A DNA stretch of 30,719 bases, from positions 1 to 30,719 of the IMG/VR virus record IMGVR_UViG_3300009149_000177. One strand, written 5' to 3'. This document shows positions 4,399 through 19,797 of this stretch, one piece after another. Positions within the stretch are counted from its first letter, which is position 1, and every line of letters begins with the position of its first letter. The notes beneath the pieces were generated by a model, which was not told the origin of the DNA, made no database searches, and was given only the letters and a program-made list of their open reading frames with translations. Source of the stretch: a virus. The translations under genes were made by a program, and so were the position numbers.

Positions 4399-4420
4399 AA
4401 TTTCTAAACTTTTTAATAAT

Positions 4421-4705: not shown

Positions 4706-4825
4706 ACCAAATTCAAATTTTCGTCAAGTCTCAAATTTTACATAACCACTGTCTGGCGATAAAATTTGAAAACCATTCCTGATTTACTCAGACCTAACTT
4801 AATATAAATTATTAAGCAATGACTT
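4667..4825 (-). ncRNA. Candidate structured small RNA
   Basis: Bounded by an exact AGTATTTATA (4831-4840) and the terminator at 4667-4705, about 150 nt with no ORF over 12 codons. It contains CAAATTTTA (4768-4760), TAAAATTTG (4740-4732) and a third AAAATTTG (4721-4714). The first can pair perfectly over 9 bp with the second, or over 8 bp with the third, so the RNA could switch between two folds. The first hairpin's loop holds CCA...TGG, which can pair again. Start point is inferred from the motif. Confidence 0.5.
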
Positions 4826-4830
4826 TCAAA

Positions 4831-4840
4831 TATAAATACT
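4831..4840 (-). promoter_or_regulatory. Phage promoter motif (AGTATTTATA) for candidate ncRNA
   Basis: Exact motif on the minus strand with no coding start nearby; divergent from the motif at 4914. Confidence 0.55.
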
Positions 4841-4913
4841 AAGTGAATATGTTTTATGTAAGGGTATGGTCATTTTTTTTGTAAGAATAAATAAAATTTT
4901 TATGATATTTTAC

Positions 4914-4923
4914 AGTATTTATT
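4914..4923 (+). promoter_or_regulatory. Phage promoter motif (AGTATTTATT)
   Basis: Ends 14 bases before the ATG at 4938. A closer ATG at 4928 reads only four sense codons before TGA, so 4938 is the gene start. Confidence 0.6.
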
Positions 4924-4937
4924 TAAAATGACCCCAA

Positions 4938-5543: not shown

Positions 5544-5544
5544 A

Positions 5545-6006
5545 ATGACAGAAGAAAAACAAATAGTGCTCAACAAGATAGATACTCTTCTACATAAAAG
5601 AAGAAGAGAACTAATCGAAGAACTTCCAAGTGTTCATGATGTAGATGATGGAATTGTTATTCGTTTCTTTACTAAATGGGATAATTGTGAAGATGATGAT
5701 AAAATCAAATACAAGAAATTGGAAAGTGAGAATGCTGATGAGAGCGTGGTATTCTTTTATATACCCAAAGGTTCGTCATTTGAGATGAAACAACGCTATT
5801 ATGTTGGCTGCATGACATGTTTAAATGGAAGAATTGATATTACAGCAAACGGTAAAACCAAACTCCTTGAAAGTTATTCGAAAATATGTGTAGATTCCGA
5901 TGAGGTTAGTGGAGAAGCATATGAGAATACGTATTTATTTATCACCAGCGAAAAAAAAAATTGGACCCCAAAGGTTCATGATTACGTGAATAAACTCGCT
6001 AATTAA
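5545..6006 (+). CDS. Hypothetical protein, possibly cupin-like, 153 residues
   Basis: Starts two bases after the upstream stop, so the two are co-translated. After a charged N-terminal helix (LHKRRRELIEELP) comes a strand-rich segment: SVVFFYIPKGSSFEMKQ, CMTCLNGRIDITANG, KTKLLESYSKICV, YENTYLFITSEK. The order resembles the beta-roll of small cupins, but the metal-binding His pattern is not seen. It ends at 6006 directly against the minus-strand gene ending at 6007. Function unknown. Confidence 0.6.
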   Translation: MTEEKQIVLNKIDTLLHKRRRELIEELPSVHDVDDGIVIRFFTKWDNCEDDDKIKYKKLESENADESVVFFYIPKGSSFEMKQRYYVGCMTCLNGRIDITANGKTKLLESYSKICVDSDEVSGEAYENTYLFITSEKKNWTPKVHDYVNKLAN

Positions 6007-6210
6007 TCACCATTTCTTTGCTCGACATTTGGACTTAGGACTCCTGACTTTTGCTGGCATGTAACACCCACATAAGTCACAATAATTTCTATTCGATAAG
6101 AACTCACATCCAACACAAATTTCCATTCTTTCTTTAGCGAGTTCTTCCACATCTGGATTAGTGAAGACATAATTCTTCCACCCCTTGAAAATTTCTGAAA
6201 CCCTGCTCAT
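6007..6210 (-). CDS. Small zinc-ribbon phage protein, 67 residues
   Basis: Two Cys pairs, ICVGC and YCDLCGCYM, and a further Cys near the end (SKCRAKKW) suggest a bound zinc. The pattern CxxC ... CxxCGCxM-AKVRSP ... C...KW recurs in short phage proteins of unknown function. The start at 6210 is chosen because its ATGA overlaps the upstream stop (6207-6209); an ATG at 6225 would add five residues. Third gene of the fibre operon, directly after the ART-like gene. Confidence 0.7.
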   Translation of the reverse strand: MSRVSEIFKGWKNYVFTNPDVEELAKERMEICVGCEFLSNRNYCDLCGCYMPAKVRSPKSKCRAKKW

Positions 6211-6851
6211 ATAACATACCCCCACTCAAAAATATCATTTCCGTCAGTATATAATGTTTTTGCCGGAACTGTTTTACTTACTATTTTATAACGTCCACCT
6301 AGATTACTTTCACCATGTAGTTTGGCGTAATTTCTGTCAATAGTAACCCAATCACCACTACCGATACCAAGACCTTTTTCTGTTTCTGATTGAAGATTAT
6401 CGATTTGGGTCTTTATGTCATTTAAAATCAATTCTTGTTGTTCGTCATAACTATGGTCATCGATACTATACTTATCCTGTAAATCATAAACGATTTGATT
6501 TTTCATTGGAAACATATTCCACTGCTGATAATAGTTATAGATATCCAATAATGGTTTGAGTTTTGATTTCAAATCAAAATTTACATCAGGAACGGCACGA
6601 TAAATTTTAATTGGTTTATTCGGTCTACCTTTTGCTGATTGAATTATTGAAATCGCCTGATTATCCCGATAATCTCGATAATGTCCATACATTCTCACCG
6701 CATCATAACCATAAAAATCATCATCATAGACATCACTTAAGTCATACATTGAATTACTACCTTCGGGAACAGGGGCTGTATGTTCCCCACGATAATCGCT
6801 TTCATATAGCAGTAGCTTGATTTCAGATTTTATAATATCCAGTACATTCAT
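6207..6851 (-). CDS. Candidate ADP-ribosyltransferase-fold protein with N-terminal prohead-cleavage-like site
   Basis: A 214-residue protein. Three spaced motifs fit the R-S-E layout of ADP-ribosyltransferases: IKIYRAVP (R85), GDWVTIDRNYAKLHG (T170) and DGNDIFEWGYV (E209 near the end). The block from GDWVT to EWGYV resembles phage proteins that I believe are ART-like, though I cannot run a profile search. The first 17 residues are a short amphipathic helix ending in LLLYE|SDY, an LxE|S site as cut by T4 gp21. T4 Alt is a head-packaged ADP-ribosyltransferase cut in that way, so an injected effector is a testable idea. It follows the fibre gene with a TAATG stop/start overlap. Confidence 0.55.
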   Translation of the reverse strand: MNVLDIIKSEIKLLLYESDYRGEHTAPVPEGSNSMYDLSDVYDDDFYGYDAVRMYGHYRDYRDNQAISIIQSAKGRPNKPIKIYRAVPDVNFDLKSKLKPLLDIYNYYQQWNMFPMKNQIVYDLQDKYSIDDHSYDEQQELILNDIKTQIDNLQSETEKGLGIGSGDWVTIDRNYAKLHGESNLGGRYKIVSKTVPAKTLYTDGNDIFEWGYVI

Positions 6852-8914
6852 TATCTATAAATTATTCTACCCCCTTTACTCACAACGATGTTGGGATTCT
6901 TTTCCTTTTCAATTAATGCGTTGTGTAGTACTTCTGGTCCAGTAAATGCCCTGTCATAGATTCTAAGTTTTTGAATACCACCATCAAAACTTGAATCGAA
7001 ATTATTACCAATAGTAAGGTCTGATTTTCTTTCGTCTTGAACCAAGATGTCAGCAGCATTATATACGAAATCGTTAATAAACAATGTACCACCAGTATTA
7101 AGTACGCCCGTTGTTTCGATTAATAAACCCATGTATACGAAGTTCTGTCCGGTATTATTGGGTGTTCTGAATATGCTGGTCATTGGTAGCCATCTCATTT
7201 CACCACTCACATAACCAGTTCCATTTGCGCTTTCTGTGGGACCGATATAACCGACTTTTTGTATACCACTTCTGGTTACAGGATATCCGGTTTCACCGTA
7301 ATATTTAATTCCATCAACAACCCATTCATATTCTTGTCTATCTGGGAACGGATGCAAACCATTCCTTTCAATTTCATGAAGATATGCATTACTTAATGGC
7401 ACAACATATTCGGTGTCATCAACCACATCGATATCAACCGCCTCACTATACATTAGAATTGAGACTTTATTCGTATAATCCGGGTTAAAGAAGCCATCAT
7501 TAAACAATGACAGTGTTGCGACATAGTCACGATTTGATAACATTGAAATCGGTTGGTTGAACTTTAGAAAATAGGAATTACCAGTAGCCCCTGTTGCACC
7601 TGTGGCTCCGGTATATTCAACACGTAATACTGTCATTGGATGTTCAACACCGGGTTCACATGGGTCTTCATATGTAAAAGTTGTTGTGTCGGCACTCAAT
7701 AACAAGCCATCTTGATGGGTTGCACCAGTACCTCCGGTTGGTGGAATATAGCAGTCCGTTGGAATTGGGTCATATTCGACTAAGAGCTTAGAGTCAACAT
7801 AATTCTGACTCTGACCATTATATATAATATAGGTCTGATAGTCGTAATGCCACGATTCTTTTAAACCAAAACTACCACCACCCCAACTTATTGAATATGG
7901 AACACCTTCCTGTTTCTCCTTATCATTTGAAAATGATTTGAAATAGAACTCAGGGAATTCTTTAATCGTCCAGACCGCACGACCATTAACATAGAATATT
8001 AATTTACCCAAGCGTTGTTCGGCACATTCCAATAGTCTTGGGGCAATAACAGGGGCATCTGGAGCAAATACCATTGTAATTATCGTAAACCCGGTTTGGT
8101 TTAATATTGTTGGAGAACTATTGGTGACGATTAAACCTTCATTATTAATATACTTGTAAGCCAATCTCTTATCCTGAGTTAGTTCGAATGCTATTGCGTT
8201 ATTCTTGATATTATCAAGAGGCGGTACTTCACTATAAACGGTTCTATACATGTTCTCTTCTGGCATACTGAACCCAGAATTAATTACTTCATGTGGTTCA
8301 AGAGCGTCTAAGTAATTATCAAAACTTGTTGTTACACCAGTGGTTGTAGTACCAGTCATAGTCTCACCACTGAAGTATGGATTATATTTATCTTCTGCAC
8401 GTGCACTCATCATATAGAATATACCAGATGAACCTGAGTAAATATTTAAAATAGTTTCGATTGTGATTCCGTAATTATATCTTGCCGGAAACAATTCATA
8501 ATTAAAACCCTCTAATTTGAAGAATCCCTGAAGATATCCACCATCTAGTTCGAAATAGTTTCCACTAGTACCTGTTGTGATTCCGGTAATTGGGAGTAGT
8601 TCTGTTGTGACTGTAACCCCGCTTGTTTCACCAGCAATAGGATTTTCGACTTCATTATAACCAACGGGGTACATTGAGAATAACGTGTCATCTGAAGTTA
8701 TTGTGATTCCACTCCACATCTTATTGGTTCTGCCATTATCGAACCCAGTTAAACCGAAATCAAGTAGATTAATATTATCTGAAACCGCACCTGACCATTT
8801 GGTCATGCTGAAGGAGGTTAACCCCGTATTCAAGTCCCATGATTTGAGGCTAGTTAGGTCAATATGTATTGCCAAATTACTGGTTATGATATCATTTAAG
8901 CATTCTAAATTCAT
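6851..8914 (-). CDS. Tail fibre/adhesin with LamG-like C-terminal domain
   Basis: About 687 residues, rich in Gly, Thr, Ser and Asn with many short strands, as in receptor-binding or decoration proteins. The C-terminal ~100 residues resemble a laminin-G/concanavalin-type lectin fold (GTLFINDFVYN ... FDGGIQKLRIYDRAFTGPEV). A short collagen-like GATGATGATG lies near residue 430. I start it at ATG 8914, 18 bases after the promoter motif, because the longer frame from 8950 uses TTG and would run through the promoter; an ATG at 8935 lies inside the motif. First gene of a three-gene operon with the ART-like and zinc-ribbon genes. Carbohydrate binding on the host surface is likely but inferred. Confidence 0.7.
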   Translation of the reverse strand: MNLECLNDIITSNLAIHIDLTSLKSWDLNTGLTSFSMTKWSGAVSDNINLLDFGLTGFDNGRTNKMWSGITITSDDTLFSMYPVGYNEVENPIAGETSGVTVTTELLPITGITTGTSGNYFELDGGYLQGFFKLEGFNYELFPARYNYGITIETILNIYSGSSGIFYMMSARAEDKYNPYFSGETMTGTTTTGVTTSFDNYLDALEPHEVINSGFSMPEENMYRTVYSEVPPLDNIKNNAIAFELTQDKRLAYKYINNEGLIVTNSSPTILNQTGFTIITMVFAPDAPVIAPRLLECAEQRLGKLIFYVNGRAVWTIKEFPEFYFKSFSNDKEKQEGVPYSISWGGGSFGLKESWHYDYQTYIIYNGQSQNYVDSKLLVEYDPIPTDCYIPPTGGTGATHQDGLLLSADTTTFTYEDPCEPGVEHPMTVLRVEYTGATGATGATGNSYFLKFNQPISMLSNRDYVATLSLFNDGFFNPDYTNKVSILMYSEAVDIDVVDDTEYVVPLSNAYLHEIERNGLHPFPDRQEYEWVVDGIKYYGETGYPVTRSGIQKVGYIGPTESANGTGYVSGEMRWLPMTSIFRTPNNTGQNFVYMGLLIETTGVLNTGGTLFINDFVYNAADILVQDERKSDLTIGNNFDSSFDGGIQKLRIYDRAFTGPEVLHNALIEKEKNPNIVVSKGGRIIYR

Positions 8915-8932
8915 TTCGTAGAGGAATTTAAT

Positions 8933-8942
8933 CATAAATACT
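8933..8942 (-). promoter_or_regulatory. Phage promoter motif (AGTATTTATG) for the fibre operon
   Basis: AGTATTTATG on the minus strand, 18 bases before the chosen ATG at 8914. Confidence 0.55.
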
Positions 8943-8963
8943 GAACTCAATTGAATATCGCTG

Positions 8964-8973
8964 AGTATTTATA
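8964..8973 (+). promoter_or_regulatory. Distal phage promoter motif (AGTATTTATA)
   Basis: Exact motif 68 bases before the ATG at 9042; a second copy lies closer at 9017, so the gene may have tandem promoters. Confidence 0.45.
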
Positions 8974-9016
8974 AAAAATAACAATAATCTTTTTAGTGCG
9001 CTAACTGGATTGACTT

Positions 9017-9026
9017 AGTATTTATA
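9017..9026 (+). promoter_or_regulatory. Proximal phage promoter motif (AGTATTTATA)
   Basis: Exact motif ending 15 bases before the ATG at 9042. Confidence 0.62.
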
Positions 9027-9041
9027 TAAAAATTCATAATT

Positions 9042-9521
9042 ATGAAATATGACAAACAAAGACTTTTCGAAGTCACAGCTAGACTCGATAAGACATTTAA
9101 ACCCAAATTAAACGAAGAATTAGAAGTTCTTGGAATGGATGCGGAAGAAGTTCCTGCTGAAGAACCAGCAATGGATGTTGATGGTGCGGAAGAACCCGTT
9201 GAGCAATCACCAGAAGAGAAACTTGCTGAATTAACTGCAAAGATTGATAGCCTTTATGCTATGGTTCATGGTGATGAAGAAGGTGAAGAATCAGCAGAAG
9301 CAGAGGAAGAGGAAATCGAAGGAGAAGGTGGTGAAGAAGTTTCTATGGATGTAGAAAATCTTCAAGAATGGAATTTCGACAAGAAAAAAGATGCGGAACA
9401 TAAGGAAAAAGCTGAAGATAAGGAAGAAGATGAGAAAGAGGAAATGGATGAAGAAATCGAAGCTCCAGCAAAACCTAAAATTCCTGTTCAAGCAGTAGCG
9501 AAAGTTGGTGGAGCAAAATAA
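9042..9521 (+). CDS. Highly acidic protein, probable prohead-core/internal protein
   Basis: A 159-residue protein with a basic first ~25 residues ending in KPKLNE|ELEVLG, then a long Glu/Ala/Asp-rich stretch (AEEVPAEEPAMDVD, EEIEGEGGEE, EDKEEDEKEEMDEE) and a short C-terminus PKIPVQAVAKVGG. A short leader ending in LxE followed by acidic low complexity recalls T4 core and internal proteins cut by gp21. Tandem promoter motifs suggest strong expression. It begins the run of head-associated genes leading to terminase. Identity with any one T4 gene is not claimed. Confidence 0.55.
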   Translation: MKYDKQRLFEVTARLDKTFKPKLNEELEVLGMDAEEVPAEEPAMDVDGAEEPVEQSPEEKLAELTAKIDSLYAMVHGDEEGEESAEAEEEEIEGEGGEEVSMDVENLQEWNFDKKKDAEHKEKAEDKEEDEKEEMDEEIEAPAKPKIPVQAVAKVGGAK

Positions 9522-9545
9522 TTTGATTCTCATTTAATAATTGGT

Positions 9546-10382
9546 ATGGGCGAGGTGAAAAAGAATCCACGTTTTTGGTCAAGTAAGTATTGGAGGCGCA
9601 ATGATGTTTCAGATACCCTGAAAGAGGTTATTGAACCCGATGTTGTGGATGTGTCGTCAATTCAAATGCATGACACACTGAATCCGCTTGTCTGGGAAAC
9701 TGATGATAAAATCAAACCCGATATTAGAAAAATCCTATTATTAAATGCCAAGAGATTCATTGAGTTTGCTGGAATTGAAGACCTTAACTTTAAGGACGTT
9801 ATTTTAACTGGTAGTATCGCCAATTTTAATTACAACGAGAATTCCGATATGGATGTTCATATCGTATTGGACTTTAACCAGATTTCTGAGAACAAAGAGT
9901 TTGTGGGTGATTATTTTAAGTTAAAAAAAGCACTCTGGGCAGAGAGATTACCGATTCAAGTAAAGGGGCACGATGTTGAGATGTATTTCCAAGACAGTGC
10001 CGAACCTCATCATTCATCTGGAACATATTCGCTGGTTAAAGACGAGTGGATTAGGAAACCAACCAAAAAAATAGTTAACATCGATACTGCTAACGTTCAA
10101 TTAAAGTCAGCCGATTTAATGAATGCTATTGAAGATTTGGAAACCAATCAAAACGCAGATGATTTTCTGAGAAAGCACGAAGCACTCAAAGACAAAATAA
10201 AGAAACTCAGACAAAGCGGACTCGATAAGAGTGGTGAATTTTCGTCAGAGAACATCGCCTTTAAAGTATTGAGAAATACCGGGTATCTTGAGAAACTCAT
10301 GAAAATGAAGAATAATTATCTCACCAAAGAACTTAGTTTGAACGAATTTCTTAATGAGGACATACAAAAAATTGAGGCATGA
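9546..10382 (+). CDS. Minimal nucleotidyltransferase-fold protein
   Basis: A 278-residue protein. Residues ~85-110 read VILTGSIANFNYNENSDMDVHIVLDF: the GS of the pol-beta-type nucleotidyltransferase loop and the catalytic DxD (D101, D103). A third acidic residue may come from HDVEMYF further on. The C-terminal 100 residues are helical, ending ELSLNEFLNEDIQ with two LNE tripeptides. Substrate unknown: related folds transfer nucleotides to tRNA, small molecules or proteins. Starts 25 bases after the acidic gene with no promoter motif between, so probably co-transcribed; it overlaps the next gene by an ATGA. Confidence 0.72.
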   Translation: MGEVKKNPRFWSSKYWRRNDVSDTLKEVIEPDVVDVSSIQMHDTLNPLVWETDDKIKPDIRKILLLNAKRFIEFAGIEDLNFKDVILTGSIANFNYNENSDMDVHIVLDFNQISENKEFVGDYFKLKKALWAERLPIQVKGHDVEMYFQDSAEPHHSSGTYSLVKDEWIRKPTKKIVNIDTANVQLKSADLMNAIEDLETNQNADDFLRKHEALKDKIKKLRQSGLDKSGEFSSENIAFKVLRNTGYLEKLMKMKNNYLTKELSLNEFLNEDIQKIEA

Positions 10383-10627
10383 GAAGGATTATCGTAACAA
10401 AGCAACAATTAAACGAATACATCGAGCGTAAGAAAGCCGAGAAAGTGTTCTATGAAATAGTTGCGGACCTACATTCGAATCGAAAGAATCTTAATGAAAG
10501 CGTTTCGATTATCGGTGCGAACCAATCTGTTATTGATAATTATAAGAGAAAAAATTTGATAACACCAAGGGTAAATGAAATGCTTATTAAATACGGTGTG
10601 GTTAATGAAAAGAAGGAAATAATATAG
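10379..10627 (+). CDS. Hypothetical protein, 82 residues
   Basis: Begins at the ATG overlapping the nucleotidyltransferase stop (ATGA), so translationally coupled. It starts with a basic helix (MRRIIVTKQQLNEYIERKKAEK) and contains NRKNLNESVSIIG, an LNE|S site, and ends VVNEKKEII. No domain recognised. Coupling suggests it works with the nucleotidyltransferase. Confidence 0.6.
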   Translation: MRRIIVTKQQLNEYIERKKAEKVFYEIVADLHSNRKNLNESVSIIGANQSVIDNYKRKNLITPRVNEMLIKYGVVNEKKEII

Positions 10628-10653
10628 GTATTGCATTTTTTTGGTCTTAATTA

Positions 10654-10663
10654 AGTATTTATA
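10654..10663 (+). promoter_or_regulatory. Phage promoter motif (AGTATTTATA)
   Basis: Exact motif 41 bases before the ATG at 10705, longer than usual; an ATG at 10669 is followed at once by TAA. Confidence 0.55.
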
Positions 10664-10704
10664 AAAAAATGTAACCAATAATTAGCACATAAAAATTTAG
10701 TCAA

Positions 10705-13239
10705 ATGAAGAAAAAATATACATCAGAGGACTCGTATTACGCCAGAATGAACAACCTAGCTGGGGTAAAGAAAACTCAAGTAAATGAATCAGGCACTCGT
10801 AACATGGGTACTTTAATTGATATTGAAAGAGCAGCAAATGGTGTTGCATACGGTATTGTTAAAGAACAGCATAAGTACTACATCAAAAAAGGTGGACTTA
10901 ATGAAAACCTAGATGCTGCGGATTTCGCATATATTGGTGGACTCGGAAACGTTACTGATTATGAATATAGTAAATTAGCTGAAGCCAGAAAGAATAGAAA
11001 CATGATGCTTAAAACCATCAATGAGGGTCTTGAGGTGAAACCAATGAAAAGTGTTGGAAAGAAAACCATGATTATTGAAGGTAAAGCCGAACAAGAAATT
11101 GAAAAGGCTGATAGTAAGTTAGGTGATTTGGATGCTGCAACAGATGCTGCTGCTGCCCCACCACCTGCTCCCGAAATTCCTGCTGATGATGGTGCTGCTG
11201 AAATGGATGCTGGACTTGAAGCTATGGGTGATGCTGAAGCTGATGCTGGTGGTGCTGAATTAGATGCTGGTATTGAAGCTACTGCTGATGGTGACCCTGA
11301 ATTAGGTGATGCTGAAATGGGTGCTGGCGATGCTGAAATTGCTGGTGGTGATGCTGAAATGGGTGCTGACCCATTGGGTGATGAAGTTCCTGCTGATGAT
11401 GGTATGGGTTCTGATAGTGGTGAAGAGGTTGCAGTTGAAGACCCGGAAACTGAAATGGAAAGAGAAATCGTAAAAATGCTTGGCAAGGTTACAAACAATA
11501 TTAGAAAAACAGAATTGACTGATTCTCAGGTCAAGTCATATGTTAATACATTTCTTTCAGCATTTAAGGATAAATTTCCTGATATCGATATCGAAGATAG
11601 AAAAGAAATGGCTGAAAAAATTACAAAAGTTGTCCCACCTGAAGATATCGAAGACTTGGAACAAAGTGTTGAAGATGCTGAAGGTATGGATGCCGAGATT
11701 ACGGCTACAGAACCCGAAGAAGAGGTTGCAGAACAACAATGCGCAGAATGTGGTGGATTTGCTCAATATGCAGAATCACGTGGTTACAATGCCGATTCTA
11801 TTAAAGAATGTGGTGAAGAAGAAATGACTAATATGGTTAGCGGTTACGCAAACGCACATGGCGAAGGTCAGAATGATGGTGACTTTAAAGCAGTAGCTTT
11901 ATTTATTACTCCAGAAATTCTTGAAAAATTAAGGGGCGAATATGGACACGATGAGTATGCTAATCAAGTTGAGCCATTTTCAATGGAAATGAATGAGTGT
12001 AGTGCTGAAATGAAAGAACAACAAATCGATGAACTTTTCGGTGGACTCAAGCATTTAGGTCAGAAAGCAGGTCAGGGTATTAAACAAGGTGTACAACAAG
12101 CTGGACAAGCAGTTAAACAAGCTGGACAAAATGTTGCTCAAGGCGTACAGCAAGCTGCTACGAATGTTAAACAAACATATCATGCTGGTGAAAAAAATGC
12201 TGCACTTGGTAAACTCGAAAAAGTTGCTGCTGAATTAGGTCAGAAAATTGCTGCTGTTAATAAGCATGCTGAGAAATCAGGAGAAGAACCAATTAATGTT
12301 AAAAGTATTCTAAGCACAATTAGTAATCAAGTTGCTGGTGCTGCTGGTACTGCTGACCTCAGTAAATTCAGAGCTAATGAAGAAGAAGGAATTCCGGTTG
12401 ATAGCGTAGAAGTTATGCCTCCAATGGAAGAAGAAGTTGATATTAAAGTTAGTGAGAAAAAAGGTAAGCCATTGAGTGCTGAAAAGGCTCCTGAAGTCGA
12501 AATGAAAGAAAGTGAAGAAAAAGAAGGTGAGGACATTGAAATTGAAGACCTCGATGTTAGTGCTGAAGAAGCTCCGGTTGAAGACGCACCAGAAGATGAT
12601 GATGACAATGTACTAGACTTAACTAAGCCCAGACAACAACCTAATGCTGAATTTGGTGTCGGTTTCGACCCAATGGGTGGTGGAGTTGTGAAGCCAGAAA
12701 GTGCTGAAATAACAACTGTTGAAGTAACCAAAGACAGCGTTAAAGTCGAAATGAATGAAAGTGAAGTCAAACTCAGAAAGTATATCCGTAACAGACTTGA
12801 AGAAAAAGCTGGTTTGAAAAAGCCAAGTCTTAATGAGAGTAAGAAATCAGATACTCTGAAGAAACTTGATAGAACCATTGACAAGCAATTCGAATTATAC
12901 GAGTCGGTTGCAATTGAAGAAGTTTTTGGTTGGAGTTTGAAAGAGAAGTTTCAGAAGCTAGACCCCAATGATGCAAAAGGTGTTGGTCAACTTTTCTACA
13001 AAGCATTTCAGGCAATATTAAATAATCCACAAATGGGTACGATTTTCAATGCTGCCAAGAAAACTTCAACTCCTGAAAGATATGCGATTCTACAACAATA
13101 TGTTGAAGCTGGTGGTGGTACATTAAGACTTGGACCCAATGGTATTCAATTTGCATCTCCTGATGTTAAGAACGCTGCGACTAAGAGTCAATTTAGTCAG
13201 GGTGGAACACAAGGCAAAACCCAACTGGGTGGAATCTAA
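10705..13239 (+). CDS. Large acidic, repeat-containing structural/core protein, 844 residues
   Basis: Residues 1-130 are mixed and carry several xNE/xIE tripeptides (TQVNE|SG, GGLNE|NL, KTINE|GL, MIIE|GK). Residues ~140-245 are an Ala/Asp/Glu/Gly repeat (AEMGAGDAEIAGGDAEMGAD type). A Cys-rich patch (CAECGGFAQ ... ECGEEEM) lies near 345-375. Residues ~450-490 are Gln/Ala/Lys-rich (QAGQAVKQAGQNVAQG). Further acidic stretches precede SLNE|SKK and a globular C-terminus (FGWSLKEKFQKLDP ... GGGTLRLGPNG). The composition fits an internal head or core protein processed by the prohead protease; no homologue is named. It has its own promoter motif and a strong terminator. Confidence 0.6.
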   Translation: MKKKYTSEDSYYARMNNLAGVKKTQVNESGTRNMGTLIDIERAANGVAYGIVKEQHKYYIKKGGLNENLDAADFAYIGGLGNVTDYEYSKLAEARKNRNMMLKTINEGLEVKPMKSVGKKTMIIEGKAEQEIEKADSKLGDLDAATDAAAAPPPAPEIPADDGAAEMDAGLEAMGDAEADAGGAELDAGIEATADGDPELGDAEMGAGDAEIAGGDAEMGADPLGDEVPADDGMGSDSGEEVAVEDPETEMEREIVKMLGKVTNNIRKTELTDSQVKSYVNTFLSAFKDKFPDIDIEDRKEMAEKITKVVPPEDIEDLEQSVEDAEGMDAEITATEPEEEVAEQQCAECGGFAQYAESRGYNADSIKECGEEEMTNMVSGYANAHGEGQNDGDFKAVALFITPEILEKLRGEYGHDEYANQVEPFSMEMNECSAEMKEQQIDELFGGLKHLGQKAGQGIKQGVQQAGQAVKQAGQNVAQGVQQAATNVKQTYHAGEKNAALGKLEKVAAELGQKIAAVNKHAEKSGEEPINVKSILSTISNQVAGAAGTADLSKFRANEEEGIPVDSVEVMPPMEEEVDIKVSEKKGKPLSAEKAPEVEMKESEEKEGEDIEIEDLDVSAEEAPVEDAPEDDDDNVLDLTKPRQQPNAEFGVGFDPMGGGVVKPESAEITTVEVTKDSVKVEMNESEVKLRKYIRNRLEEKAGLKKPSLNESKKSDTLKKLDRTIDKQFELYESVAIEEVFGWSLKEKFQKLDPNDAKGVGQLFYKAFQAILNNPQMGTIFNAAKKTSTPERYAILQQYVEAGGGTLRLGPNGIQFASPDVKNAATKSQFSQGGTQGKTQLGGI

Positions 13240-13271
13240 TATAGAAGTACCATAATAAATATTTTTGAAAG

Positions 13272-13296
13272 AACCCGAAGAAATTCGGGTTTTTTT
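13272..13296 (+). terminator. Intrinsic terminator after the 844-residue gene
   Basis: AACCCGAA and TTCGGGTT form an 8-bp stem with a GAAA loop (13272-13291), followed by five more T. Confidence 0.85.
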
Positions 13297-13330
13297 GTAA
13301 CAATTAATTACCTTTGTCGTATAAGAAGCT

Positions 13331-13750
13331 ATGATACACAGAAAATTTAATAAACTAAAATTCAAGAGAAGCTACGTTGGTGGTTCCAAGCAGCGTGAAC
13401 TTGAAATCTTTGCCGAGGTTCAAGGAACTAAGGAAGATAATTCTGAGGTTAATTGGCTTGAATACCGCAGAGTGTTCACGCAATATAGTGATGATGTTCT
13501 TAACATTATATTGAGTTGGAAGCTCGTAATGACTAAGTTGAGTATTGGTTTTCTAATACTTACTGCTCTTGCGTTGTTAATCAACCCCGTCTTGGCAGTA
13601 ATCGGATTATTACTATCCGTGGCATCTCGTTTAACTGCTCAATATTTTAAAAAGAAGGAAAGTAAGAGTATGTCAATGTATGATTATTCTCTGAACATCA
13701 TATTGTCTGCAATAAAAACTGAAGCCGGACTCCATTTTAGTAAGAATTAA
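13331..13750 (+). CDS. Membrane protein with hydrophobic hairpin, 139 residues
   Basis: A basic N-terminus (MIHRKFNKLKFKRSYVGG), a soluble charged segment, then a hydrophobic stretch at residues ~70-99 (LSIGFLILTALALLI-NP-VLAVIGLLLSVASR). The central Asn-Pro suggests either one long helix or a re-entrant hairpin, followed by a basic QYFKKKESK. It could be a holin-like or other inner-membrane protein; no diagnostic motif. It has no AGTATTTATA; instead TACCTTTG (13309-13316), a host-type TAnnTTTG, sits 14 bases before its ATG, so it may use host RNA polymerase, a weak inference from one site. Confidence 0.6.
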   Translation: MIHRKFNKLKFKRSYVGGSKQRELEIFAEVQGTKEDNSEVNWLEYRRVFTQYSDDVLNIILSWKLVMTKLSIGFLILTALALLINPVLAVIGLLLSVASRLTAQYFKKKESKSMSMYDYSLNIILSAIKTEAGLHFSKN

Positions 13751-13760
13751 TCCGGTTCTC

Positions 13761-13770
13761 AGTATTTATA
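13761..13770 (+). promoter_or_regulatory. Phage promoter motif (AGTATTTATA)
   Basis: Exact motif ending 13 bases before the ATG at 13784; an ATG at 13779 reads only seven sense codons. Confidence 0.65.
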
Positions 13771-13783
13771 GTAAAACAATGTT

Positions 13784-14257
13784 ATGGATGAGGATAAACT
13801 AAAATTGATATACATCTTAAAGATTGGATATAACGCAAGGGATGAGGGGCTTTATGAATTTATTTTCTCCCTAGACCCAACAAATATTGATGTCATGGGT
13901 TGGATGTGGGATACAAGTCCTGCCTGTGATAATGCCGAACCCCCTGAAAGTGAATATATTGATGCACTTTATAGTCTAAAAACCAGCAGTCTGAACTTTT
14001 TCTGTTTACATGAAGCCGTTGATAGGGACTATATGCACGGTTATCACACAATTCATGCTCTTGCTTATGAACTAGAACAAGAACCGGATGGTACTTACAG
14101 TGATTATGATAAGATGTTTGAAAGCGAAAAGGATGATTTACCATTACTAGTATTCCATTACGGTATGTCGCTGGCGAAGGTTAAGGATTTATTTAGTTCA
14201 AGGAGTATTATTTTAAAAGATAAAGAATTTGTTGAGACCTCTTCGATAGAGTTCTAG
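13784..14257 (+). CDS. Hypothetical acidic protein, 157 residues
   Basis: A soluble acidic protein. N-terminal segment LIYILKIGYNARDEGLYEFIF, a Trp-rich MGWMWDTSPACDNAEPPE, then HEAVDRDYMHGYHTIHALAYELEQEPDG and a C-terminal DDLPLLVFHYGMSLAKVKDLF. It resembles no family I can name. It is transcribed alone, directly before the structured RNA region, and a promoter motif for that region overlaps its last codons. Confidence 0.62.
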   Translation: MDEDKLKLIYILKIGYNARDEGLYEFIFSLDPTNIDVMGWMWDTSPACDNAEPPESEYIDALYSLKTSSLNFFCLHEAVDRDYMHGYHTIHALAYELEQEPDGTYSDYDKMFESEKDDLPLLVFHYGMSLAKVKDLFSSRSIILKDKEFVETSSIEF

Positions 14258-14265
14258 TATTTATA
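14256..14265 (+). promoter_or_regulatory. Phage promoter motif (AGTATTTATA) for the structured RNA
   Basis: Exact motif overlapping the last base pair of the previous stop codon. No coding start follows until 14449, and another motif lies at 14425, so this one appears to serve the RNA between them. Confidence 0.6.
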
Positions 14266-14270
14266 ATCGC

Positions 14271-14412
14271 CTATCTCACCAGATTAGGGAGAAAAGATTT
14301 CGAGGCACGATAGTTCAAGATAATTACCGTGCCTTGCGTTTAAGTTCATCGCACCATTTGGGTGAAGGAAATCGGAGCACGTTACATCAAGATATGTAGC
14401 GTGCTTTGCTAT
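14271..14412 (+). ncRNA. Tandem duplicated two-hairpin RNA upstream of terminase
   Basis: Two ~72-nt units. Each has a small hairpin opened by CACC (14277 and 14352; the second is CACC-ATTTG-GGTG) and then a long hairpin. Hairpin A (14304-14333): GGCACG-A-TAGTT, loop CAAGAT, AATTA-C-CGTGCC. Hairpin B (14376-14405): AGCACG-T-TACAT, loop CAAGAT, ATGTA-G-CGTGCT. The six-base loops are identical while stem bases change in pairs (outer G-C to A-T; inner G-T to C-G and T-A to A-T). Both are followed by TTGC. Compensatory change with a fixed loop is strong evidence for selected RNA structure and a loop-binding partner. Unit B ends in GCTATTTTT, which may terminate. No ORF. Confidence 0.75.
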
Positions 14413-14424
14413 TTTTAGGTCGAT

Positions 14425-14434
14425 AGTATTTATT
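14425..14434 (+). promoter_or_regulatory. Phage promoter motif (AGTATTTATT) for terminase
   Basis: Ends 14 bases before the ATG at 14449. Confidence 0.62.
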
Positions 14435-14448
14435 ATAAATATTTTAGA

Positions 14449-16548
14449 ATGAATCTTGACCTCGACTTAAATAGTGATTTGGAGAAGAAACCTCAGAAAT
14501 TGAAAATCGAGAAATCGAAAACTGAAGAGAGTTTCCCCGAACACGTACCAGCAGTTCCTTTTGATATGTTAAAGGAGCGACAAAAAGAGGAAGCACGAAA
14601 ACTTGCAAAAAAACTCCGAAAAGCCGGAAGTATTGAACCCGTTGTAATTACCGAAAGTGGTGTTGCTAAAAAAGTCAGTGATTTAACTATTCCAGAACAA
14701 GAAGAAGAATTTGTTAAATGTGCCAGAGACCCAATATACTTCATTGAAACTTATTTAACTGTCTTTGACCAGACTCAAGGTGAGGCGGGAATGATTGTTC
14801 CATTTAAACTTTTTACATTTCAAAAAAGATTGGTGAGAGCACTTAGGAAAAAAGAAAATCGTTTCGTTATTGCCAATAAATATCGTCAGGCAGGAGTTAG
14901 TACAACCACCTGTGCGTTTATCGCATGGTATGTGATGTTTAATAAGAACCGTCAAGCAGCTATTGTTGCGGATAAACTCGAAACCGCTAGGGATGAGTTA
15001 ATGAGTGATGTTGTTGATTTTATTGAGAGTTGTCCATCTTGGCTTAAACCCAAAACCGGAAAAGAATCTGAAGATAATCTTAAGGACACACAAAAGCTAA
15101 AGTATTACGATAATAATTCAAAACTTGGTGCATTTGCCTCAAAATCACTTCGTGGTATGACACCAACGCTGTTGTTCTGGGATGAAACCGCATGGGCAGA
15201 AAAGGGTGATAAGTTCTGGACCTCGGCACAGCCAACACTACAAACTGGTGGACGTGCGATTATGGTAAGCACACCAAATGGTCTCGACCCTGTTTTCTAT
15301 AAACACTTTCAAGGTGCAAGAGAACTTGATGAAAACGGTAAGTCAAAAAATAATTTCCATGCCGTTGAACTCTGGTGGTTTAATGACCCAAGGTACAATA
15401 AGGATTTGGTTTGGCTCAAAAACAAGGGAAAAACCAATGAGATTAGATTGGAAGATAACGGGAAAAGTGATGAGCAACGTATTGCATTGCAGAGTGATGG
15501 TTGGGAAGCCAGTAGTCCTTGGTTTGAAGACCAAGTTAAGAATGCTAATGGTGATATGCGTAAAATCGCACAGGAATTACTGTGCTCATTCCTTGGTTCT
15601 GGTGATAACTTCATTGCCGAAGAATTTTTGAAACGAATTGAGGACCATGAAATTCAGAGCGATTTTAATCAAGAATATCTCGATGGGAATATGTGGGTAT
15701 TTGAGGAAGCCCTGCCGGGTGAAGATTATATTATGTCACTCGATGCCTCACCGGGACACGGTGAAGACTTTTCTACATTGAATATGTTAAAGGTCAAGGA
15801 AATTATTGAAGAAAAGGTTGTGACTAAGAACGGTAAGTCAAAAAAGAAGAAAGTTAGACGAACCGAAGTCGTACAGGTTGCTGAATATTACGGAAAGGTT
15901 ACACCACAGATGCTTGCTGAAATTGCATACCAATACGGGAAGCGTTATAATGACGCATATGCCGTTGTTGATGTCACAGGTGGGTATGGGGTCCAAACTA
16001 TTGAGAAACTGCTGGAATACGGCTATGAGAACATCCATTATGCCGAAGTATCACACAAACCAACACGAGATAGGTTAAGTGGTTATATTAAACAAGGTCA
16101 TAAGACCCTAAGTGATGGTAAAGTTATAAATGTGGATTTGATTCCGGGGTTCTTTATCGGAAACAATCGTGCATCGGTTCTAACCGAGATGCAAAGAGCA
16201 ATCCATTTAGGTGATGTTAAGATTAAGTCATTGAGATTACTTAATGAATTAAAAACATTCGTTACTGTAGCTGGAAGTCGTGTTGCTGACCATAAGCGCA
16301 CCTTTCATGATGATAATATTATGGGATTGGCTACTGGACTCTATGTTTTGAATTTTGATATGGCAAAGTTCAAACAAAGTAAGGGTATTACAGAAAAAAT
16401 GCTCAAATCTATTCTTACAATAAATGATATTAAAGATATTGAGAGTAGACAAAAAATAAAGAGAAAGCCTATGTTTGGTGCAGGTAGCAGCAACCCAGAA
16501 AACCCTTATGGGGCAAATGACTGGTTATTTCAGGGCATAAAACAGTAA
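14449..16548 (+). CDS. Terminase large subunit (gp17-like)
   Basis: A 699-residue DNA-packaging motor. Residues 1-90 are a charged leader. The ATPase has Walker A KYRQAGVSTT (144-153; T4 gp17 has a similar SRQLGMTT) and Walker B LLFWDE (241-246), with the following AW as in T4. The RNase H-like nuclease has D432 (IMSLDASPGHGED), D508 (AVVDVTGG) and D621-D622 (HDDNIMG). All catalytic residues are present. It docks on the portal to cut and pump DNA into the prohead. Unlike many T4-like phages the terminase carries no intein; the portal does. Its small subunit is not recognised in this window. Confidence 0.95.
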   Translation: MNLDLDLNSDLEKKPQKLKIEKSKTEESFPEHVPAVPFDMLKERQKEEARKLAKKLRKAGSIEPVVITESGVAKKVSDLTIPEQEEEFVKCARDPIYFIETYLTVFDQTQGEAGMIVPFKLFTFQKRLVRALRKKENRFVIANKYRQAGVSTTTCAFIAWYVMFNKNRQAAIVADKLETARDELMSDVVDFIESCPSWLKPKTGKESEDNLKDTQKLKYYDNNSKLGAFASKSLRGMTPTLLFWDETAWAEKGDKFWTSAQPTLQTGGRAIMVSTPNGLDPVFYKHFQGARELDENGKSKNNFHAVELWWFNDPRYNKDLVWLKNKGKTNEIRLEDNGKSDEQRIALQSDGWEASSPWFEDQVKNANGDMRKIAQELLCSFLGSGDNFIAEEFLKRIEDHEIQSDFNQEYLDGNMWVFEEALPGEDYIMSLDASPGHGEDFSTLNMLKVKEIIEEKVVTKNGKSKKKKVRRTEVVQVAEYYGKVTPQMLAEIAYQYGKRYNDAYAVVDVTGGYGVQTIEKLLEYGYENIHYAEVSHKPTRDRLSGYIKQGHKTLSDGKVINVDLIPGFFIGNNRASVLTEMQRAIHLGDVKIKSLRLLNELKTFVTVAGSRVADHKRTFHDDNIMGLATGLYVLNFDMAKFKQSKGITEKMLKSILTINDIKDIESRQKIKRKPMFGAGSSNPENPYGANDWLFQGIKQ

Positions 16549-16562
16549 AACAAAACATAGAT

Positions 16563-16572
16563 TGTATTTATA
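16563..16572 (+). promoter_or_regulatory. Distal phage promoter motif (TGTATTTATA)
   Basis: TGTATTTATA 60 bases before the portal ATG; a better copy lies at 16599. Confidence 0.35.
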
Positions 16573-16598
16573 CTAAACCGACTTTTGCGAAATTTCGG

Positions 16599-16608
16599 AG
16601 TATTTATA
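16599..16608 (+). promoter_or_regulatory. Phage promoter motif (AGTATTTATA) for portal
   Basis: Exact motif ending 24 bases before the ATG at 16633. Confidence 0.6.
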
Positions 16609-16632
16609 AAAAACTATAATAAATTATAAAAA

Positions 16633-19600
16633 ATGGCTGGCGAAGAAAAGAAAAAAATGACGGTATATCAGGAATTGAATTCCTTGTTAAACCTTGATGG
16701 GTTTGGGTTTCAAGATGCATCGTCTGTTGCACCCGTGGCGACACCGGAAAAATCAAAAATTGTTATCAAGGGTGCTAGTCCTGAAGAGATTCATAGAAAA
16801 GGTCTGGAAATCGAACAAAAACGTGAACTTCAGAACAAATTCTTCCGTACCACCGATAGAGGATTCCAAAAAGCACTTCAATACGAAGCAGCCAGACTTC
16901 CAGCGTATATTGATTATGAGGGTATGGAATATTACCCAATTATTAGTAGTGCATTGGATTTATTTATGGAAGAAGCCACCACTATTGGACTAAACGGTAA
17001 AATGCTGAATATTTACAGTAATAAAGAAAGAATCAAATCATTATTAGAAGAATTTTTCTATGATATTGTTAACGTGAATGTTAACTTACCATTTTGGGTG
17101 AGAAACGTCTGTAAATATGGCGATAATTTCGTTTTACTCTATGGAGAGCGTAAAAAGGGTATAACCCACGTAAAACAGCTCGTAAACTACGAAATTGAGA
17201 GGTTTGAAAGGATTCAAAATGGCAAACCACTTGTAAGATTTAAGGAAAGAATGACTGGTGACGAGTTCAACGTGTTTGAAATCGCTCACTTCCGTTTACT
17301 TGGAGACGATAAGTATCTACCCTATGGAAGTTGTTTATTGTCAGATACTTATATAAAAACAAGGAATGGTGTTAAACAAATAAAGAATATTCAAAAAGAC
17401 GATATTATTATTGGTTTTGATATTAAAAAACAGGAAAAAATTGAAACTAAGGTATTGGATACTGTTTATAGTGGGAAAAAAAATGCATTTAAAATTTCCA
17501 CAAAACATAATTACATTGATTCATCAAAAGAACATAAATTTTTAATTTATGATAATGAAATTAGTGATTTTAGATATGAATTTGTTGAAAATTTAAAAAT
17601 TGGTGATAATTTAGTTACCAATAATAAGGACAATAATTCAACTAACATTAAAATAAATAAACAAGAAATTTTTACAACTGACCGTTTAGGTAGAGAATTC
17701 CATTATTATCAAAATATTGATAATATTCCTGATGAAATGACTGTTGAATTTGCGCAATTCATAGGATTTATGTTTGGGGATGGATGGATTTCACATAAAA
17801 AAGACGTGTCATTCGCATTAGGAGAATATGAAACCCAAAATTTAAAATATATTGATTTGTTAAAGAAATTTTCGGGGGTTAAACCAAGATTAATAAAACC
17901 TAGCATTAAAATAAATTACGAATACTCATACGTTACTGTTGGTTCTAAAATGTTTGCAACCATTATGAAAAATTTGGGTTTTTATGGTAAATTTAATGAA
18001 AAAAGAATACCTGATTGGGTTTTTAATTCGCCAAGAGAAATTAAAGAAGCATTTTTAGATGGTTTCGTTGATGCAGATGGTTCAATCTTTATTGATAAAT
18101 GGGATTGTGTTAGATATTCGATTGAATTGGGTAATTCGATGTTAATTAAAGATTTAAAATATTTAGTCCAATCGTTAGGGTATAAATCGGGTAAAATTGG
18201 AAGTAGGAAAAGAAATGATACAAAATATATTAAAGGAAGAAAAATTAATTCGAATACTTCATATTATTTTTATTTTTTTAAAACAACAAACAAACAAATA
18301 AAAAAATATGATATTCCAAATAGAATATCAGATGAATTTATTATTGAACCAATTATTTCAATTGAAAATATTGGTGTTCATGATGTATATGATATTCACG
18401 TGGATAATGAAAATCATAATTTCTTTGCTAATAATATTGTTGTACATAATTCTATCTTAAATAAGGTCCGTAGGGTATTCCGTCAGCTAGTAATGGCTGA
18501 AGATGCTATGCTTACCTACCGTATTATACGTGCTGGTGAGAAAAAAGTGTTCAAAATCGATGTTGGTAATATCGATGAGGACGATATCGAAGAATATATT
18601 TACAAAGTAGCAACTACGTTCAAGAAAACAGCGCAAGTTGCACCAAATGATGGTCAAATCGATTATAGATTTAACATTCTCGGTAATGACGAAGATTATT
18701 TCCTTCCGGTAAGGAATGCAAATACTCAAACAGGTATTGAAACCCTAGCGGGTGCAGCGAACCTTGACCAGATTCAAGACATTGAATACCTCAGAGACAA
18801 TCTATTTACTGGTCTTGGTGTTCCAAAGCCATTTTTGAGTTTCCAAGATAGTGCTGGTGGTGGAAAAAACATGGCACAATATGATATTAGGTTTGCCAAG
18901 AAAGTAAATCGTATCCAACAAGCAATAATTCAGGAATTAAATAAGATGGCAATGATTCATCTTTTCCTATTAGGTTATAGTGGTGAGGATTTAGGTGGTT
19001 TTACCCTAACTCTTACTAATCCGAGTACACAACAAGAATTATTGAAGTCTGAATTGATGCGAGATAAGGCTCAAACCTATACTGAATTAACACGTGCTGA
19101 AGGTGGGGTTGCTGCAATGTCACACACAAGTGCGAAACGCTTGATTTTCAACATGAGTGATAAAGAAATTGTTGATGACCTTAAACAACAGAAAATGGAG
19201 AAGGTCGTTATGCAAGAACTTGCAGATGCTCCTGTTACAATTAAGAAATCGGGTTTATTTATTGACATTGACGATAGGTTTGGAGAACCAATTGAAGACG
19301 TGGCTGCGATGAGTGGCGATACCGAAGGTGGTATGGGTCCAGAAGGTGGAATGCCACCTCCGGGTGGTGATATGGGTGCTCCACCTCCGGGCGGTGATAT
19401 GGGCGGTGCTCCACCAATGGGTGACTTAGGCGGTGCGCCTCTAGGTGGTGGTGCTGCACCTCCAATGATGGAAACTCGAATGAGTGAAGAAGAATACAAT
19501 AATCATATCGAAAAACTGGTTTATGGTAGTTCAAAAGAAACTGACATTAAGAAAGAAACTAGACAGAAAGAGATTATTCAGGAAAATAATGATAAAAATG

Positions 19601-19746
19601 AGAACCTGAATCAGAAGGCTTTGAATATGGTTAGTGAGATTGAGAGTTTATTGGAAGCCACAGAATCATTTAATAATCAACAAAAAAATGATGATGATAA
19701 AGACCTTGAAATCGAGGATATTGAGAACTTGGACTTAGATGATTAA
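16633..19746 (+). CDS. Portal protein (gp20-like) containing an intein
   Basis: A 1037-residue precursor. Residues 1-233 and 607-1037 are the portal exteins (664 residues after splicing; T4 gp20 has 524). Portal hallmarks: YYPIISSALDLFMEEA, LPFWVRNVCKYGDNFVLLYG, and after the intein SILNKVRRVFRQLVMAEDAMLTYRIIRA ... VFKIDVGN, close to the T4 gp20 core. Residues 234-606 are an intein. The C-terminal tail has a Gly/Pro/Met repeat (PPPGGDMG twice and variants, ~915-945) and then a Glu/Asp/Asn-rich end. The portal forms the dodecameric vertex through which DNA is pumped; the tail extension is longer than usual. Confidence 0.93.
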   Translation: MAGEEKKKMTVYQELNSLLNLDGFGFQDASSVAPVATPEKSKIVIKGASPEEIHRKGLEIEQKRELQNKFFRTTDRGFQKALQYEAARLPAYIDYEGMEYYPIISSALDLFMEEATTIGLNGKMLNIYSNKERIKSLLEEFFYDIVNVNVNLPFWVRNVCKYGDNFVLLYGERKKGITHVKQLVNYEIERFERIQNGKPLVRFKERMTGDEFNVFEIAHFRLLGDDKYLPYGSCLLSDTYIKTRNGVKQIKNIQKDDIIIGFDIKKQEKIETKVLDTVYSGKKNAFKISTKHNYIDSSKEHKFLIYDNEISDFRYEFVENLKIGDNLVTNNKDNNSTNIKINKQEIFTTDRLGREFHYYQNIDNIPDEMTVEFAQFIGFMFGDGWISHKKDVSFALGEYETQNLKYIDLLKKFSGVKPRLIKPSIKINYEYSYVTVGSKMFATIMKNLGFYGKFNEKRIPDWVFNSPREIKEAFLDGFVDADGSIFIDKWDCVRYSIELGNSMLIKDLKYLVQSLGYKSGKIGSRKRNDTKYIKGRKINSNTSYYFYFFKTTNKQIKKYDIPNRISDEFIIEPIISIENIGVHDVYDIHVDNENHNFFANNIVVHNSILNKVRRVFRQLVMAEDAMLTYRIIRAGEKKVFKIDVGNIDEDDIEEYIYKVATTFKKTAQVAPNDGQIDYRFNILGNDEDYFLPVRNANTQTGIETLAGAANLDQIQDIEYLRDNLFTGLGVPKPFLSFQDSAGGGKNMAQYDIRFAKKVNRIQQAIIQELNKMAMIHLFLLGYSGEDLGGFTLTLTNPSTQQELLKSELMRDKAQTYTELTRAEGGVAAMSHTSAKRLIFNMSDKEIVDDLKQQKMEKVVMQELADAPVTIKKSGLFIDIDDRFGEPIEDVAAMSGDTEGGMGPEGGMPPPGGDMGAPPPGGDMGGAPPMGDLGGAPLGGGAAPPMMETRMSEEEYNNHIEKLVYGSSKETDIKKETRQKEIIQENNDKNENLNQKALNMVSEIESLLEATESFNNQQKNDDDKDLEIEDIENLDLDD
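17332..18450 (+). mobile_element. Intein with LAGLIDADG homing endonuclease in the portal gene
   Basis: Encodes 373 residues, from Cys1 (CLLSDTYIKTRNGVKQI, just after YGS) to His-Asn (IVVHN) followed by Ser+1 of the extein. Splicing blocks are recognisable: block A at the N-terminus, a block-B-like KISTKHNYIDSSKEHKFL, and C-terminal VHDVYDIHVDNENHNFFANN. Between them are two LAGLIDADG helices, FIGFMFGDGW and FLDGFVDADGS, each with its acidic residue, so the endonuclease looks active. The stretch is visibly richer in A/T and AAA/AAT codons than the flanking portal sequence, consistent with separate ancestry. The insertion splits the conserved portal motif YG(S)-S-x-L. Confidence 0.93.
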
Positions 19747-19787
19747 TTGATTGGTGTTATTATTGTTAAGCGTTTATAATTAATTAC

Positions 19788-19797
19788 AGTATTTATA
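19788..19797 (+). promoter_or_regulatory. Phage promoter motif (AGTATTTATA)
   Basis: Exact motif ending 19 bases before the ATG at 19817. Confidence 0.6.

What the first reader, a model, noticed from the sequence alone, without database searches (positions are those of the whole stretch)
14271..14412. Tandem, covarying two-hairpin RNA with an invariant CAAGAT loop, directly upstream of terminase
Two ~72-nt units each fold into a small CACC hairpin plus a long hairpin. Between the copies the long stems change in compensating pairs (GGCACG/CGTGCC to AGCACG/CGTGCT; TAGTT/AATTA to TACAT/ATGTA), while the six-base loop CAAGAT and the 3' TTGC stay fixed. This is what selection on RNA structure with a loop-binding protein or RNA looks like. 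The unit has its own promoter motif at 14256 and precedes the terminase gene with its separate motif at 14425. Options: a terminase-regulating leader, a packaging-associated RNA (functional analogy to phi29 pRNA only), or a decoy for a host or phage RNA-binding protein.
Basis: partly seen in the sequence, partly recalled or inferred. Interest (0 to 1): 0.82.

Follow-up and report, generated by a model that had tools for sequence, protein, structure and literature searches.

The report
Phage copies of bacterial defence RNA
Two small folded RNAs encoded just before a giant phage's DNA-packaging gene are look-alikes of an unannotated RNA that sits beside a suspected bacterial anti-phage defence system, and the phage, which lacks the defence proteins, probably uses them as decoys to switch that defence off.

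Summary
Window 14269-14416 holds two RNA units (types A and B), each a short hairpin plus a long hairpin. Across 34 phage units, 19 of 23 pairs show compensating changes. Units occur in 52 of 78 related sources, nearly always between an unknown gene (P0002) and terL.

The link to terminase is only positional: two relatives carry the RNA elsewhere, and 14 have the terL junction without it.

The phage-only model also finds this RNA in Bacteroidota chromosomes. There it has its own promoter and points at a two-gene pair, DUF3800 + partner (PADLOC candidate defence system PDC-M04), ending 0-4 nt from the partner's stop codon. Phage types A and B match different protein subtypes; a third unit from the same phage slot matches another. 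Phage P1 rlfA-rlfB is the same system, with an unannotated RNA in the same place. None of 14 phage records tested encodes DUF3800 or the partner.

Best explanation: the phage units are RNA mimics (decoys or antitoxins) against PDC-M04, like pseudo-ToxI and Racr RNAs. RNA identity and genetic association are shown by sequence; expression, binding, inhibition and PDC-M04 defence activity are inferred. Rfam has no family for this RNA.

The parts
14256..14265 (+). late-promoter-like motif AGTATTTATA of unit A; TATTTAT starts 11 nt before the unit
   Evidence: Spacing of exactly 11 nt in all 18 distinct GCC-type (type A) units that have the motif, including one called '?' by the script; the motif occurs 13x in the window against 0.84 expected. 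Promoter activity is inferred.
14269..14343 (+). RNA unit A (type A); transcript start probably near 14269
   Evidence: cmsearch 79.7 bits (a training sequence of the model); matches the bacterial type A RNA beside PDC-M04
14270..14297 (+). unit A hairpin 1 (outer CCT/AGA, inner CTC/GAG, bulged A, CC/GG)
   Evidence: pair counts, helices 1 and 2
14301..14336 (+). unit A hairpin 2, 15-position stem with an A-C mismatch, loop CAAGAT 14316-14321
   Evidence: pair counts, helix 3; the A-C mismatch is in 13/13 phage A and 11/12 bacterial A units
14344..14416 (+). RNA unit B (type B)
   Evidence: cmsearch 77.5 bits (training sequence); bacterial type B counterparts beside PDC-M04 in G168, G511, G543
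14373..14416 (+). unit B hairpin 2 (loop CAAGAT 14388-14393) and T-rich tail; terminator-like 3' end
   Evidence: terminator scan, fold
14425..14433 (+). separate promoter-like motif of terL (context, not part of the RNA)
   Evidence: AGTATTTAT; GTATTTAT begins 9-10 nt after the RNA in 41 distinct units
13784..14257 (+). P0002, conserved upstream gene of unknown function (context)
   Evidence: upstream in 78 hits checked; no Pfam, PHROG or PADLOC match
14449..16548 (+). terminase large subunit (context)
   Evidence: phrog_2 E 3.1e-33; Terminase_6N

Best explanation
Units A and B are phage-encoded mimics of the RNA component of a bacterial candidate anti-phage system, PADLOC PDC-M04 (M04A = DUF3800 protein with an RNase H fold, M04B = unknown partner). 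In bacteria this RNA is transcribed from its own promoter toward the end of the M04A-M04B operon and presumably binds one of those proteins, as an antitoxin or cofactor. The phage makes the same fold from its own late-type promoter but has no M04 proteins. Its copies would bind the host M04 protein and keep it inactive. The types collected in one slot before terL (A, B and a third class) each match the RNA of a different M04 protein subtype, so one phage could counter several host variants. Shown by sequence: the RNA fold and its conservation, identity with the M04-associated RNA, RNA subtype tracking protein subtype, absence of M04 genes from the phage records tested, promoter-like motif at fixed spacing. 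Inferred: transcription, protein binding, inhibition, and that PDC-M04 defends at all.
For: (1) The phage-only model R1 finds bacterial RNAs at 81-92 bits. All 9 pattern hits in GTDB genomes are Bacteroidota or Chlorobiaceae. (2) Protein-first tests: the 4 strong PDC-M04B loci among 395 genomes all have the RNA 0-4 nt from the M04B stop, convergent; 10 of 10 complete M04AB pairs in inspected flanks have it, plus 3 more later. (3) Phage-only model R2, from a different unit in the same slot (L012, L068, L078), hits 6 of 10 distant M04 loci exactly at the M04B 3' end, E 3e-11 to 3e-6. (4) Type B RNAs sit with G168-type M04 proteins, type A with L222-type. (5) Both models find an RNA at the 3' end of P1 rlfB (E about 1e-5); rlfA is PDC-M04A (1e-95) and rlfB PDC-M04B (1e-51). 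(6) No PF12686 or PDLC04358 in 14 phage records, seven of them above 300 kb (positive control). (7) Unpaired bases agree 83% between phage A and bacterial RNA, paired bases 70%, as expected if protein contacts are kept while stems drift. (8) Patchy presence and changing position suit an anti-defence cassette. (9) Precedents: pseudo-ToxI (PMC3475682), Racr (PMC10651486).
Against: No transcript, binding or infection data. PDC-M04 is only a candidate defence system. Orphan copies also exist in some bacterial MAGs, so an orphan RNA need not be anti-defence; it could be a relic, or immunity of a genome to M04. The phages' hosts are not known directly; their nearest isolated relatives by terL include Flavobacterium phages at only 26% identity. 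The M04B fold could not be predicted well. The strong preference for the terL slot is not explained by a decoy role.
Confidence: 0.68

Rival explanations
1. The RNA came from an M04 locus but was recruited as a regulator of the phage's own genes (for example late transcription or 3' ends) and no longer concerns M04.
For: Long-term residence in one slot across phages whose terL differs by up to about 40%; in many loci unit B abuts the P0002 stop codon without a promoter motif.
Against: Unpaired recognition bases remain those of bacterial M04 RNA; several subtypes are kept side by side; relatives dispense with it at terL. Only 1-2 copies per 246-365 kb record, so not a general 3'-end signal.
Confidence: 0.14
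2. A cis-acting leader, attenuator or terminator that controls terL.
For: The RNA ends about 32 nt before the terL start in most loci; the long stem with a T-rich tail is terminator-like; one relative (L044) has a plain terminator-like hairpin there instead.
Against: terL has its own motif downstream of the RNA. The RNA is elsewhere in G006 and L180 and absent at terL in 14 relatives. Bacterial homologues lie in defence loci; no terL was found in their flanks.
Confidence: 0.08
3. A hitch-hiking relic: a self-sufficient RNA cassette transferred from M04 loci that has no present function in the phage.
For: Remnant and orphan copies exist in bacterial MAGs.
Against: Near-perfect pairing with many compensating changes across diverged phages shows continuing selection.
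Confidence: 0.05
4. A packaging RNA or pac-type element used by the terminase, like phi29 pRNA.
For: Position beside terL only.
Against: Absent at terL in 14 relatives and far from terL in G006; homologues in bacterial defence loci. G-U pairs on the + strand (for example 32 of 34 at columns 34-67) indicate RNA, not a DNA site.
Confidence: 0.01

Closest known systems
DUF3800 RNA motifs (Rfam DUF3800-I, -VIII, -IX and others)
   Same: Small structured RNAs associated with DUF3800 genes; in G168 a DUF3800-VIII match lies about 190 nt from this RNA, beside the same M04AB pair.
   Different: This RNA matches no Rfam family, even at E 10; the phage copies have no DUF3800 gene.
PADLOC PDC-M04 candidate system, including P1 rlfA-rlfB
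   Same: Bacterial and P1 loci carry the same kind of RNA at the M04B 3' end.
   Different: I found no mention of an RNA component for PDC-M04 (PADLOC models are proteins; no paper in the library names PDC-M04). The phage in the window has the RNA without the proteins.
Pseudo-ToxI of phage PhiTE (PMC3475682)
   Same: Phage RNA imitating the RNA partner of a host protein-RNA system, without the protein gene.
   Different: Different protein system and RNA fold; here several subtypes are collected and conserved across many phages; no inhibition shown yet.
Racr RNA anti-CRISPRs (PMC10651486)
   Same: Solitary viral copies of a host immune system's RNA.
   Different: Target is not CRISPR-Cas; no CRISPR repeat involved.

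Membership tests
DUF3800 RNA families of Rfam | Match to an Rfam DUF3800 covariance model | tested here: not met
   No match for window or bacterial copies; the neighbouring RNA in L274 does match DUF3800-VIII
DUF3800-associated RNAs in the wider sense | RNA adjacent to a DUF3800 gene | tested here: met
   Met for bacterial homologues and P1; not met for the phage copies themselves
PDC-M04 system | M04A and M04B genes beside the RNA in the window | tested here: not met
   No PF12686 or PDLC04358 in the window or 13 related phage records
RNA mimic of a host defence RNA (pseudo-ToxI / Racr kind) | Orphan viral RNA homologous to a host system's RNA | tested here: met
RNA mimic of a host defence RNA (pseudo-ToxI / Racr kind) | Expressed in infection and inhibits the host system | not testable with these tools
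   Needs RNA sequencing and infection assays
Type III toxin-antitoxin | RNA neutralises a protein toxin encoded beside it | not testable with these tools
   RNA plus nuclease-fold protein is present (M04A resembles RNase HII, Foldseek E 1.8e-5), but the RNA is convergent rather than upstream in the operon; toxicity unknown
Terminase leader RNA | Always upstream of terL | tested here: not met
   G006, L180, and 14 relatives without it
phi29 pRNA | Rfam match to any packaging RNA family, or fixed link to the packaging genes | tested here: not met
   No Rfam match; not always linked to terL

The most novel reading that the evidence does not exclude
PDC-M04 (including P1 rlfA-rlfB) is an RNA-protein immune system with a previously unannotated convergent RNA, and a clade of phages with genomes above 300 kb keeps an exchangeable array of decoy RNAs against its different subtypes in one slot before terL.
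Probability: 0.55. Interest if true: 0.9.

Novelty: new variant of a known kind. Interest (0 to 1): 0.84.

Why it matters
It gives a candidate defence system (PDC-M04) a missing RNA part, points to the same part in the classic laboratory phage P1, and suggests how phages evade it. RNA decoys are known against only a few systems (ToxIN, CRISPR-Cas); this would add an unrelated one, with several subtypes side by side. The P1 locus makes the question directly testable in E. coli.

Tried and rejected
Rfam at gathering and at permissive E-values: no family. Sequence search of 50,697 phage records with consensus units: nothing beyond short chance matches. Loop pairing with the terL start: the window's terL start ATGAATCTTGA contains ATCTTG, the complement of CAAGAT, but relatives with the same loop lack it (sequences), so rejected by inspection. 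HK022 put-type antiterminator and CsrA/RsmA sponge: considered from memory; the loop lacks a GGA core and copies lie at other sites; not tested further. Generic terminator: only 1-2 copies per large record. RNA belonging to type I restriction loci: M04AB is within or near hsd genes in many but not all loci (none found near L224, L281, L288), so the commoner partner is M04. M04B structure: mean pLDDT 57, no PDB match, not used. Literature on PDC-M04: none in the held library; the original DUF3800 motif paper (10.1093/nar/gkx699) was not held.

Full report
What is there. The window is a 30,719-base IMG/VR phage fragment. terL lies at 14449-16548 (phrog_2), a portal gene follows, and P0002 (13784-14257, no known family) precedes it. 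Between P0002 and terL are two RNA units: A 14269-14343 and B 14344-14416. Each has a short hairpin (outer 3-bp stem, small internal loop, 3-bp inner stem, bulged base, 2-bp cap) and a 15-position long stem with a 6-base loop, then a T-rich tail. Both fold much better than shuffles.

Conservation. terL searches in IMG/VR gave 77 relatives. I extracted 34 distinct units and aligned them by structure, with N filling in the loop and linker where type B is shorter. The pair counts are decisive: 97.2% of cells paired, 19 of 23 pairs with double-sided changes, covariation 0.576 against 0.232 shuffled and at most 0.144 slid. Caveats: the alignment was made to fit the structure, and units were chosen for long stems. 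The short hairpin was not used in the choice of units and also covaries (all three outer pairs and four of five inner pairs change on both sides). G-U pairs on the + strand place the RNA on that strand; type A has a constant A-C mismatch. The model R1 built from these units finds clear matches in 52 of 78 sources (many were training sequences). More loci came from pattern scans and a wider terL search.

Anatomy. Two subtypes recur. Type A begins GCCYATC, has a 6-base hairpin-1 loop, linker TTTCG and end GCGGTTTT. Type B begins GTTCATC, has a 4-base loop, linker ATCG and end GCTATTTT. They occur singly or in tandem, usually A-B, but B-A in L013, L028 and L037. In all 18 distinct GCC-type units with an upstream TATTTAT, the motif starts exactly 11 nt before the unit (17 called A by the script plus L010, called '?'); hybrids with a type B start have it at 13-15. 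This suggests transcription beginning at the first base of the RNA. Type B often abuts the P0002 stop codon without a motif. terL has its own motif after the RNA.

Not a terminase element. Of hits checked, 78 have a P0002 homologue upstream and 79 have terL downstream, so the slot is strongly preferred. But in G006 (325,854 bases) a type A lies at 284582 and a type B at 250078, both away from terL, whose own junction has no RNA. In L180 the RNA sits about 3 kb downstream of terL between convergent genes. Fourteen relatives have the P0002-terL junction with no RNA (loci listed plus the duplicate records L015 and L075). Records of 246-365 kb carry only one or two copies.

The bacterial homologue. 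A type A pattern scanned against 84,980 GTDB genomes hit 9 contigs: eight named Bacteroidota groups and one Chlorobiaceae MAG. R1 scores the 8 full copies at 81-92 bits; the ninth was cut by the locus end and scores 91.8 in the full contig. The bacterial RNAs begin just after a Bacteroidota-type promoter sequence (TAnnTTTG, recalled from general knowledge; sequences). Their 3' ends point at the end of a two-gene operon: DUF3800 (PF12686, E 2.6e-15; PADLOC PDC-M04A 3.7e-77) and PDC-M04B (1.3e-62). Several loci are inside or near type I restriction operons. Searching protein-first, the 4 strong PDC-M04B loci among 395 genomes all have the RNA 0-4 nt from the M04B stop. Ten of ten complete M04AB pairs in inspected flanks have it, and three more were found later.

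Subtypes match. Type B RNAs in G168, G511 and G543 lie beside M04 proteins closer to G168 than to the L222 type (M04B 45-57% against 36-37% for G511 and G543); type A in G580 lies beside L222-type proteins. A third unit in the same phage slot (L012, L068, L078) was modelled from those three phage sequences alone (R2). It hits 6 of 10 distant M04 loci, each exactly at the M04B 3' end, E 3.4e-11 to 3.1e-6. Thus one phage slot holds RNAs matching three M04 subtypes.

Phage P1. A protein search with M04A hit P1 rlfA. rlfA and rlfB are PDC-M04A and M04B (1e-95, 1.3e-51). Both phage-derived models find an RNA at NC_005856.1 52905-52976, minus strand, convergent at the rlfB 3' end (R1 E 1.4e-5, R2 E 1e-5). 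It has a sigma-70-like promoter just upstream and a terminator-like stem. It is not among the annotated features listed there. rlfA and rlfB are non-essential in P1 (PMC10695390), and RlfA has been noted as an RNase H fold (PMC3710099). My model of M04A agrees: RNase HII matches, E 1.8e-5. DUF3800 has been described as an RNase H fold associated with ncRNAs (PMC10910872).

Orphan in the phage. None of 14 phage records, seven of them above 300 kb (G001, G002, G004, G005, G006, G025, G026), has PF12686 or PDLC04358; PDLC04358 rang in 8 of 9 bacterial genomes as positive control. Completeness of these records is not certified, and a strongly diverged M04 protein could be missed.

Mechanism and limits. 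Between phage A units and bacterial RNAs the unpaired positions agree 83% and the paired ones 70%, as expected if a protein contact surface is kept while stems drift. With orphan status, patchy presence, several subtypes in one array and phage-type promoters, a decoy or antitoxin mimic is the most economical reading, with precedents in pseudo-ToxI (PMC3475682) and Racr (PMC10651486). Whether the bacterial RNA restrains or guides M04 is open; a decoy works in either case. Expression, binding, inhibition and the defence role of PDC-M04 are untested. Orphan copies in some bacterial MAGs are an unexplained counterpoint.

Noticed in passing
L298:2657-2728 (NC_005856.1 52905-52976, minus strand): Predicted unannotated RNA convergent with P1 rlfB, with promoter-like and terminator-like sequences; rlfA-rlfB match PDC-M04A/B.
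   Followed up: partly
L034:1758-1905 (also L035): A type B unit whose long stem seems to be kept but whose loop is replaced by about 100 nt of extra sequence, possibly an insertion element or intron; no Rfam match. Between the neighbouring type A unit and terL in L020, L034 and L035 lies about 600 nt of extra sequence.
   Followed up: partly
L223:4516-5807 and L273/L287: The RNA sits in type I restriction operons beside a DUF1016-like nuclease gene (name from memory, not tested) instead of M04AB.
   Followed up: no
L263, L266, L268-L270, L272, L276, L291-L293, L295: Orphan bacterial copies of the RNA without M04 genes found in the flanks read; L264, L265 and L275 have remnants of M04B.
   Followed up: partly
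L274:1763-1827: Rfam DUF3800-VIII RNA (47.8 bits, above cut-off) about 190 nt from the type B RNA beside M04AB in G168: two DUF3800-linked RNAs in one locus.
   Followed up: no
window 1269-19796, 13 sites: AGTATTTAT motif (13 found, 0.84 expected), mostly 20-50 nt upstream of start codons, resembling the T4 late promoter TATAAATA; likely the late promoter of this phage group.
   Followed up: partly
window 16633-19746: The portal gene seems to carry an intein (extra block of about 370 residues after 'LPYGSC', ending 'HNFFANNIVVHN'; absent in the L180 portal, which reads LPYGNSILNK there).
   Followed up: no
window 2024-3587: tRNA cluster on the minus strand: three Gln, one His, two Pro and one of unclear identity.
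   Followed up: no
window 13784-14257 (P0002): Gene of unknown function that precedes terL throughout the clade, including in relatives without the RNA.
   Followed up: no
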